In this document: piece by piece, positions 35,081-36,885 of the stretch
Layout: every line of letters starts with the position of its first letter
How positions within the stretch are numbered: position 1 is the first letter of the stretch
Assembly (NCBI GenBank): GCA_016780765.1
Contig: JADHLH010000015.1
Location: 1 to 36,885, forward strand
Direction of reading: 5' to 3'
Length of the DNA: 36,885 nt
From: Alphaproteobacteria bacterium
GTDB lineage: Bacteria > Pseudomonadota > Alphaproteobacteria > Puniceispirillales > Puniceispirillaceae
Notes under the pieces: generated by a model
Database searches by the model: none
Told to the model about the DNA's origin: nothing
What the model saw: only the letters and a program-made list of their open reading frames with translations
Translations under genes and position numbers: made by a program

Positions 35081-35122
35081 TATAAATGCGGGCGTATAAA
35101 TGCGGGTGTATAAATACGGGTG
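35081..35122. repeat. 14-bp tandem array upstream of tRNA-Thr
   Basis: TATAAATGCGGGCG, TATAAATGCGGGTG and TATAAATACGGGTG follow one another from 35081. Each unit carries a -10-like TATAAA. It lies between hemY and the predicted tRNA-Thr promoter. Confidence 0.93.
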
Positions 35123-35168: not shown

Positions 35169-35242
35169 GCCCGCTTAGTTAAATGGTATAACGGGTCATT
35201 CGTAATGATTAGTTGGGGGTTCGATTCCCTCAGCGGGCACCA
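35169..35242 (+). tRNA. tRNA-Thr (anticodon CGT)
   Basis: The cloverleaf is complete. The acceptor GCCCGCT/AGCGGGC is followed by an A discriminator and an encoded CCA. The D-arm is GTTA..TAAC. The anticodon stem GGTCA/TGATT encloses loop TTCGTAA with anticodon CGT. The T-arm is GGGGG-TTCGATT-CCCTC. It reads ACG threonine codons. The inverted-repeat arm starts on its final A, so it is the probable attachment site of the right-hand element. Confidence 0.95.
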
Positions 35243-35311
35243 CTCACCGTGTTACACCTGCCATAAAGCACCTTGATTCAAGCAGTTAGTCAATCACTGC
35301 TGAATTGGGTA
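35242..35311 (+). repeat. Left arm of a 70-bp inverted repeat
   Basis: These 70 bases match the reverse complement of 36816-36885 at 68 positions; mismatches are at 35264 (T/C) and 35284 (A/C). The match begins exactly at the last base of the tRNA-Thr CCA and ends 6 bp before the recombinase ATG. Inside are short dyads: GTGT-T-ACAC, TTGA-T-TCAA, and AGCAGT/ACTGCT spaced by 9. It is a candidate recombination site. Confidence 0.95.
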
Positions 35312-36445: not shown

Positions 36446-36472
36446 TAGTGGTGAATTCTAAAAACCCAGCAC

Positions 36473-36766
36473 CTACAACTGATACCCCTTTCCCAAAAAG
36501 TACCTTGAAATACCGTAGGAATAAATCAATAGAAAAACTAGGTTCACCCATTTTAACTGAGGTTCGGTGCGTAACCACGCACAGTAAATCCAAATCAAAC
36601 AAAACGGGAAGGACAAAAACATAGTGAGTGGGTACCAATCAAAAATGATTGCTATAGCGCTTAATAAACCAAGTAATAGGGCAATATTTTTTAGTATTTT
36701 TTCTGTTTTTACAGAGATTTCAGAGGGTAATAAAAATTTAAAAACTGCGTTAACTAAACTGTCCAC
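36473..36766 (-). CDS. Small three-helix membrane protein, AT-rich cargo ORF
   Basis: This 97-residue minus-strand ORF reads inward from the right repeat arm and converges on the recombinase gene, 24 bp away. Three hydrophobic segments are visible (about 27-43, 47-65 and 73-90), with Trp/Tyr near their ends. This resembles small DUF6552-type three-helix proteins, a tentative likeness. The start must be the GTG at 36766, because TAA directly precedes it; AAGG lies about 10 bases upstream. Base composition is markedly AT-rich compared with the rest of the window. The overlapping plus-strand frames look less protein-like. Function unknown. Confidence 0.55.
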   Translation of the reverse strand: MDSLVNAVFKFLLPSEISVKTEKILKNIALLLGLLSAIAIIFDWYPLTMFLSFPFCLIWIYCAWLRTEPQLKWVNLVFLLIYSYGISRYFLGKGYQL

Positions 36767-36815
36767 TTACATGTCGCCTTATGAAAAACTTATTACTGAG
36801 TTTCAGTATCTTAAA

Positions 36816-36885
36816 TACCCAATTCAGCAGTGATTGACTAACGGCTTGAATCAAGGTGCTTTGTGGCAGGTGTAACACGGTGAGT
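36816..36885 (-). repeat. Right arm of the 70-bp inverted repeat, running to the window edge
   Basis: This is the inverted copy of 35242-35311, 68/70 identical, with the match unbroken at the last base of the window. The next base outside would correspond to the second C of a tRNA CCA if the symmetry continues. It is therefore a truncated view of a longer repeat. Confidence 0.95.

What the first reader, a model, noticed from the sequence alone, without database searches (positions are those of the whole stretch)
36473..36766. Orphan AT-rich three-helix membrane ORF as element cargo
It is the only non-recombinase ORF between the arms, is compositionally foreign, and has a forced GTG start directly after an in-frame TAA. 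Small membrane proteins on minimal mobile elements can be toxins, superinfection-exclusion factors or holins. Nothing in the sequence decides between these.
Basis: partly seen in the sequence, partly recalled or inferred. Interest (0 to 1): 0.5.

Follow-up and report, generated by a model that had tools for sequence, protein, structure and literature searches.

The report
Mobile single-gene membrane-protein cassette
A small three-helix membrane-protein gene next to a recombinase in a marine bacterium belongs to a conserved, widely shared family whose closest relatives sit in other ocean bacteria as precisely inserted single-gene units; what the protein does in the membrane is still a guess.

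Summary
The ORF is real, correctly placed, foreign in composition, and not an orphan: 97 relatives were confirmed in genome contigs, and it is under purifying selection. 'Element cargo' is supported. Elements with an 86-93% identical recombinase have the slot between recombinase and inverted arm almost empty (17 bp) or 636 bp long (a DSBA-type gene in the one searched); the window, and one decayed relative, carry this gene there. The closest relatives are mostly single-gene units behind guaA, bounded by copies of the guaA 3' end; a sister genome with 98% identical GuaA has the empty site, so that 465-bp insertion is precise. 12 of 147 SAR11-order genomes carry repeated exact sites; the units read hold varied cargo. 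They resemble CIMEs, use the published GIsul2 att core, and show no integron-attC-like folding. The recombinase that moves them is unknown. Protein function is unproven: a SemiSWEET-like half-transporter is my best guess (weak evidence), superinfection exclusion the main rival, holin or toxin unlikely. The window ends at a contig end inside the right arm, so this element's outer boundary is unseen.

The parts
36473..36766 (-). 97-aa three-helix membrane-protein gene, GTG start
   Evidence: ORF; homologues; dN/dS 0.048-0.068 against L049-L056; model
36449..36815 (.). variable slot between recombinase stop and right arm (367 bp here)
   Evidence: 17, 17, 636 and 636 bp in L151, L152, L150 and L154
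35321..36448 (+). tyrosine recombinase gene (DUF6538 + Phage_integrase); longer TTG-start frame from 35273
35242..35311 (+). left arm, abutting the tRNA 3' end
   Evidence: similar copies in G000:C30 and in related elements
36816..36885 (-). right arm, inverted copy of the left arm; contig ends here
35169..35242 (+). tRNA-Thr(CGT)

Best explanation
The ORF is a selected gene for a small membrane protein that moves as optional cargo beside attachment sites of tyrosine recombinases. Here it fills the slot between a tRNA-linked recombinase and an inverted arm, and reads away from that arm. Shown: the slot varies in elements with near-identical recombinases; the closest relatives are largely single-gene units at the guaA 3' end with a site copy on either side, one of them with an empty site in a sister genome; near-identical copies lie beside very different GuaA proteins. 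Inferred: a tyrosine recombinase acting in trans joins site to site (join inside ATTGAGTGGGA) and so moves the gene without a recombinase of its own. How the gene came into the tRNA-Thr element is not seen. Inferred and weak: the protein is a homodimeric half-transporter that works like a SemiSWEET, with Trp59 and Asn75 in the place of its conserved Trp and Asn, moving a small solute. The confidence is for the cargo/cassette part; for the transporter part alone about 0.3.
For: Slot comparison. L046 keeps gene, recombinase and arm in the same order. Empty against filled guaA site: 98.7% over 447 bp after the right copy, 57% after the left copy, 96.7% upstream. Second site at +464/465 in 2 of 30 guaA loci, both with the AT-rich gene. 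GuaA 53% identical but gene 95% identical in nucleotides between L049 and L050. Purifying selection. Core GAGTGGGA is the published GIsul2 att (passages of PMC9376610). Fold: hhalign aligns W59/N75 with SemiSWEET W50/N66, probability 15%, P 0.0017; SWEET 5cth_C 1.6 A over 77 residues, Z 6.0.
Against: No recombinase for the guaA units found; no circular form seen. The window copy has no guaA-type site. For G045 no empty-site partner was found among five relatives. L054 and L056 show no second copy of 11 or more bases of their tRNA. The window's right side is a contig end. Transporter: no PQ motif; MtN3_slv hits only weak, and unrelated families (DUF6518 0.00046, YwiC 0.00061) score better; a re-run gave probability 9% and 1 of 150 shuffled controls reached its score; unrelated bundles have higher Z, up to 9.2. 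Between close copies dN/dS is up to 0.4 on few changes.
Confidence: 0.65

Rival explanations
1. It is a superinfection-exclusion or other defence membrane protein, spread by phages and cassettes because it protects the cell.
For: Relatives of 58-60% identity on two contigs with phage genes: terminase, sheath, tube and portal in L009; polymerase clamp in L129. A restriction-modification pair fills one SAR11 unit. Patchy: 18 of 101 genomes.
Against: Defence library: no hit for the window, 2 of 78 relatives weakly (E 0.045) to a 2TM effector. No match in 50,697 phage records. Most other unit cargo read is not defence-like. Invariant polar and aromatic residues also fit a solute site.
Confidence: 0.2
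2. It is a holin, or a toxin of an addiction pair.
For: Size and helices; weak Holin_SPP1 hit, 13 bits.
Against: Cut-off is 27 bits; many chromosomal relatives without phage neighbours and without a constant partner gene in the 18 loci listed.
Confidence: 0.05
3. The guaA units and the window copy are ordinary chromosomal genes moved by homologous recombination; the site repeats are chance or leftovers of long-gone islands (CIME relics), with no present mobility.
For: Short-form relatives are scattered chromosomal genes; no Phage_integrase match on the array contig in 12 of 12 array genomes. Relics of decayed islands would also leave site copies.
Against: Sites are not chance: reversed-pattern control 0 in 147 genomes. 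The empty-site comparison is exact at the core. Arm motif in 12 of 20 later sites and 0 of 14 first sites, though the motif was read off these same ends.
Confidence: 0.2

Closest known systems
GIsul2 / CR2-sul2 unit at guaA (PMC9376610, passages seen)
   Same: guaA 3' end as site, core GAGTGGGA; an inner unit bounded by att copies is moved by the GIsul2 integrase
   Different: Units here are about 0.4-2 kb with one or two genes and no integrase seen in the unit
CIME (cis-mobilizable element; PMC5704250, passages seen)
   Same: Kept flanking sites without integration or transfer genes; tandem accretion
   Different: Origin by decay of a larger element is not shown here; recurring site-plus-arm modules with different cargo
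Integron gene cassettes (recalled)
   Same: Single-gene units in one orientation in arrays
   Different: No folding excess like attC; no integrase at the array contigs
SemiSWEET (MtN3_slv, PF03083)
   Same: Three helices; Trp and Asn 16 residues apart, aligned by hhalign
   Different: No PQ motif; profile score below the reporting level for the window protein
DUF6552 (PF20189)
   Same: Weak hits in 24 of 78 relatives, best E 0.0014
   Different: No hit for the window protein at E up to 1

Membership tests
SemiSWEET (PF03083) | PQ motif in helix 1, invariant in the 20 sequences aligned | tested here: not met
   A3 invariants P21 Q22; absent in A1 and A2
SemiSWEET (PF03083) | Trp in helix 2 and Asn in helix 3, 16 residues apart | tested here: met
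   W59 and N75 aligned with W50 and N66
SemiSWEET (PF03083) | profile score over the curated cut-off | tested here: not met
   window: no hit at E up to 1; 14 of 78 relatives hit, best E 0.01
SemiSWEET (PF03083) | fold of a SemiSWEET triple-helix bundle | tested here: inconclusive
SemiSWEET (PF03083) | dimeric solute transport | not testable with these tools
   bench assay needed
DUF6552 (PF20189) | profile score over the curated cut-off | tested here: not met
   window protein: no hit at E up to 1
SPP1 holin (PF04688) | profile score over the curated cut-off | tested here: not met
   13 bits, cut-off 27
CIME (guaA-linked relatives) | retained site copy on both sides | tested here: met
   L049, L051, L052, L060, L062 within 4 mismatches; L055/L228 right copy at 5 mismatches
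CIME (guaA-linked relatives) | no integration gene in the unit | tested here: met
   the small gene fills the 465-bp unit of L207
CIME (guaA-linked relatives) | derived from a decayed integrative element; mobilised in cis by a partner | not testable with these tools
   no intermediate or partner seen
CIME (window copy) | retained site copy on both sides | tested here: inconclusive
   inverted arm on one side only, then contig end; no guaA-type site
Integron cassette | folded attC-like site | tested here: not met
   mean z -0.79 in 24 unit ends against -0.50 in 15 guaA ends
GIsul2-type guaA island | core GAGTGGGA at the guaA 3' end | tested here: met
   for guaA-linked relatives, not the window
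GIsul2-type guaA island | own integrase next to the site | tested here: not met
   12 of 12 SAR11 array genomes have no Phage_integrase match on the array contig

The most novel reading that the evidence does not exclude
The guaA 3' end anchors an integron-like gene-exchange system of streamlined marine bacteria: small units that share a site and, in SAR11, an arm module are exchanged between SAR11, SAR116 and gammaproteobacteria by recombinases supplied in trans. This membrane protein is one of its most mobile cargoes and was also picked up by a tRNA-linked element.
Probability: 0.35. Interest if true: 0.8.

Novelty: new variant of a known kind. Interest (0 to 1): 0.6.

Why it matters
How single genes enter and leave streamlined marine genomes is open. 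A 2007 SAR11 study reported polymorphic gene indels and found no attC sites with its hypervariable regions (PMC2217521, passages). A precise, site-bounded single-gene unit with an empty-site partner makes the question testable at the bench. It also ties an apparent orphan ORF to a conserved, mobile, phage-shared membrane-protein family.

Tried and rejected
Holin and toxin: see rivals. PnuC likeness: one relative hit phrog_1880 at E 0.012, but hhalign against the two 78-aa neighbours gave nothing. The better model had no Foldseek match at E 0.001 or below. SWEET chains do appear in the VIA list but are not the top rows. URAT1 and similar hits in solved structures cover about 35-40 residues (best E 0.0025 with A2) and were taken as chance. 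L028/L047 was a false hit, recognised by eye as a CDP-alcohol transferase-like frame. Integron attC rejected (simple base shuffles). Source phage of the guaA units not found: exact arm and extended core gave 0 and 0 contigs; looser patterns gave 12 and 2. Of the 12, six look like guaA 3' ends (L239, L241, L243, L244, L245, L247), four of them (L239, L241, L243, L245) beside a frame that looks like an integrase by eye; none carried the small gene's arm. The window recombinase in IMG/VR: 3 pattern matches, none confirmed. Repeats of tRNA ends in L054 and L056: none of 11 bases or more. Serine recombinases were not searched. Corrections: my note says 13 SAR11 genomes with repeated sites; the count is 12. 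The GuaA identities printed used a wrong stop codon and are replaced.

Full report
What is there. The ORF at 36473-36766 (minus) has 97 codons and a GTG start after TAA. Its GC is 0.347, the recombinase's 0.521, that of 1-35168 0.601, with no 294-bp window there below 0.493. The window is the complete contig C18 of a 2.25-Mb, 124-contig genome and ends inside the right 70-nt arm. The left arm abuts tRNA-Thr(CGT). Contig C30 of the same genome repeats the last bases of the tRNA, the arm and the start of the recombinase gene at 90% over 111 bp.

It is not an orphan. 19 of 101 genomes matched; one (G014) was dropped as false, leaving 18 with the window's own. Five of the 18 have frames broken by stops or shifts: G013, G023 (in the last helix), G026, G027, G040. 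In genome contigs 134 stretches matched a pattern, 97 encode a relative, 80 were kept; some are loci already seen under other ids (for example L049 = L030, L051 = L031, L055 = L032, L056 = L033). Record titles name mostly Alpha- and Gammaproteobacteria, many of marine genera, with SAR116 or Puniceispirillum in two of the closest. 78 sequences were aligned: the window, 74 of the 80, L035, L008 and L009; left out were the 4 with a stop flag (L067, L075, L089, L093) and L116 and L128. Identity to the window is 44-87%; 16 columns are invariant, among them W59, Y61, W64, E68, Q70, K72 and N75.

Phages. Two IMG/VR contigs carry relatives of 58-60% identity. L009 has terminase, sheath, tube and portal genes around it, L129 a polymerase clamp and a CobS-like gene. 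50,697 phage records gave no match.

Two forms. A long form with an N-terminal extension (window, L049-L062, L075) has GC 0.26-0.38 in loci of 0.28-0.57; a short form of about 80 aa sits in many chromosomes, without constant neighbours in the 18 loci listed. Window against L049-L056: dN/dS 0.048-0.068, dS 0.95-1.49; against L060-L062 0.072-0.102 at dS above 1.8; L057-L059 saturated; among close copies up to 0.4 on few changes.

Cargo slot. Recombinase relatives are common (68 of 101 genomes at E 1e-20). The five closest are in G031, G040, G036, G045 and G026 (83-93%); in four the slot behind the recombinase is visible, in G045 the contig ends. From the end of the recombinase gene to the inverted arm: 17 bp in L151 and L152, 636 bp in L150 and L154, 367 bp in the window; the arm marker used for the 636-bp pair differs by necessity. 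The L150 slot encodes a DSBA-type protein; L154 has a matching stretch by eye. None of the four has the small gene. L046 (G026) keeps recombinase end, small gene and arm in the window's order at 70% identity over 650 bp, gene and recombinase decayed. In L154 the inverted arm runs on into 14 bases of inverted tRNA 3' end; L151 lies at tRNA-Arg(CCG).

A precise single-gene unit elsewhere. In L049, L050, L051, L052 and L055 the long-form gene starts 66 bp after the guaA stop, in L058 55 bp (GuaA confirmed by NCBIfam for L049, L050 and L062). A second copy of the guaA end follows the gene within 4 mismatches in L049, L051, L052, L057, L060 and L062, at 5 mismatches in L228, the L055 genome, and 1138 bp on in L050's genome. 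Of the 15 long-form loci, 9 have a guaA-type site shortly upstream (L049-L052, L055, L058, L060-L062), L057 has one downstream only, L053 lies 1.75 kb on with degenerate sites, L054 is behind tRNA-Leu, L056 behind tRNA-Arg and an integrase, and L059 and L075 have none. The window has none.

Empty site. G054, with GuaA 98% identical to G030's, has one site. Its 447 bp from the site on are 98.7% identical to G030 from the right copy and 57% from the left copy; 300 bp upstream are 96.7% identical. The left copy continues AATGA, the right GTGA as in the empty site, so the join lies inside ATTGAGTGGGA. For G045 five relatives gave no match on either side (0.53-0.68, two of them over 37-40 bp only). 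45 of 60 family genomes had a GuaA match; of the 30 loci returned, 2 have a second site at +464/465, both with the AT-rich gene; L209, L213, L232 and L236 have second sites elsewhere without it. L049 and L050 share 53% of GuaA residues but 95% of the gene's nucleotides: horizontal transfer.

SAR11 arrays. ATTGAGTGGGAATRA occurs exactly in 27 of 147 genomes of the order of G103 (itself reached through an array locus); the reversed pattern in none. 12 of the 27 hold 2-4 copies, on one strand, successive copies 0.39-2.07 kb apart. Loci of 20 of the 27 were fetched, all 12 among them. Units read there include GNAT, glycosyltransferase, saccharopine-dehydrogenase-like, methyltransferase, 2OG-Fe oxygenase, a C5 methyltransferase with a BsuBI/PstI endonuclease, YdhR-like, zinc-ribbon and 78-aa NMN-transporter-like frames, the last two kinds from L060 and L062, and the small gene. 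Not each frame was searched. Three filled sites match the empty L200 at 0.86-0.92 after the last copy and 0.57-0.59 after the first. A 20-nt arm motif, read off these ends, is found in 12 of 20 later sites and 0 of 14 first sites; in the 20 loci 12 matches with up to 3 mismatches lie all within 150 bp before a site. No folding excess. The 12 genomes have 1-2 Phage_integrase matches each, none on the array contig; by length (302-343 aa) they may be Xer proteins, which I did not test.

Mechanism. The guaA end with core GAGTGGGA is the att of GIsul2, whose integrase also moves an inner unit (PMC9376610, passages); guaA is a listed target of mobilizable elements, and CIMEs are defined in PMC5704250 (passages). 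I infer movement of site-gene-site units by a recombinase in trans; it is unknown. Searches for SAR11 or Pelagibacter with guaA, GMP synthase, cassette or integron terms showed no account of these arrays in listings and the passages opened; subscription papers and preprints are not covered.

Protein function. Three long helices. Against 20 SemiSWEETs hhalign gives probability 15%, P 0.0017 over 53 columns, with W59/N75 on W50/N66. My re-run gave probability 9%, P 0.0036; 1 of 150 block-shuffled controls reached its score, the two reversed controls did not. The PQ motif is missing. Other families score as well or better in Pfam: DUF6518 0.00046, YwiC 0.00061, DUF6552 0.0014, MtN3_slv 0.01. SWEET 5cth_C fits at 1.6 A over 77 residues, Z 6.0, while unrelated bundles reach Z 9.2. 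So 'works like a SemiSWEET' stands at about 0.3 and membership is not claimed. Defence library: no hit for the window, 2 of 78 weakly. The remark that W and N form the SemiSWEET substrate site is recalled.

Noticed in passing
L187-L206 (order of G103), behind guaA: Arrays of small gene units bounded by copies of the guaA 3' end, with a shared arm motif before many sites and different cargo; in the L187-L189 comparison the arrays are followed by a constant 171-aa frame and a photolyase-like gene.
   Followed up: partly
L159 (G105:C4, about 80.8-81.1 kb; the same contig as G099:C4): A second, decayed copy of the gene with a guaA-type site (1 mismatch in 15) beside it, far from guaA: a possible secondary-site insertion, like L057.
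   Followed up: partly
L194: One guaA unit holds a C5 cytosine methyltransferase and a BsuBI/PstI-type endonuclease: a restriction-modification pair as a unit.
   Followed up: no
L053:3413-3646 and L060:1158-1391: 78-aa three-helix-like frames near the small gene with weak NMN_transporter (PnuC) hits, E 0.0037 and 0.0096.
   Followed up: partly
L009:3808-4026 and L129:1697-1939: The gene family lies on two phage contigs, in L009 between an esterase/lipase-like gene and the tail sheath gene.
   Followed up: partly
L048 (G000:C30) 533-643; L150, L152, L154 beyond the right arm: C30 has tRNA 3' end, arm and recombinase start; a stretch of about 200 bp before it looks, by eye, like the inverse of a stretch beyond the right arm in L150, L152 and L154.
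   Followed up: no
101 genomes: The window's recombinase belongs to an expanded family: 68 of 101 genomes at E 1e-20, up to 15 matches in one genome (G045).
   Followed up: no
35081-35122: Three tandem copies of a 14-nt repeat (TATAAATGCGGGCG-like) between the upstream gene and tRNA-Thr.
   Followed up: no
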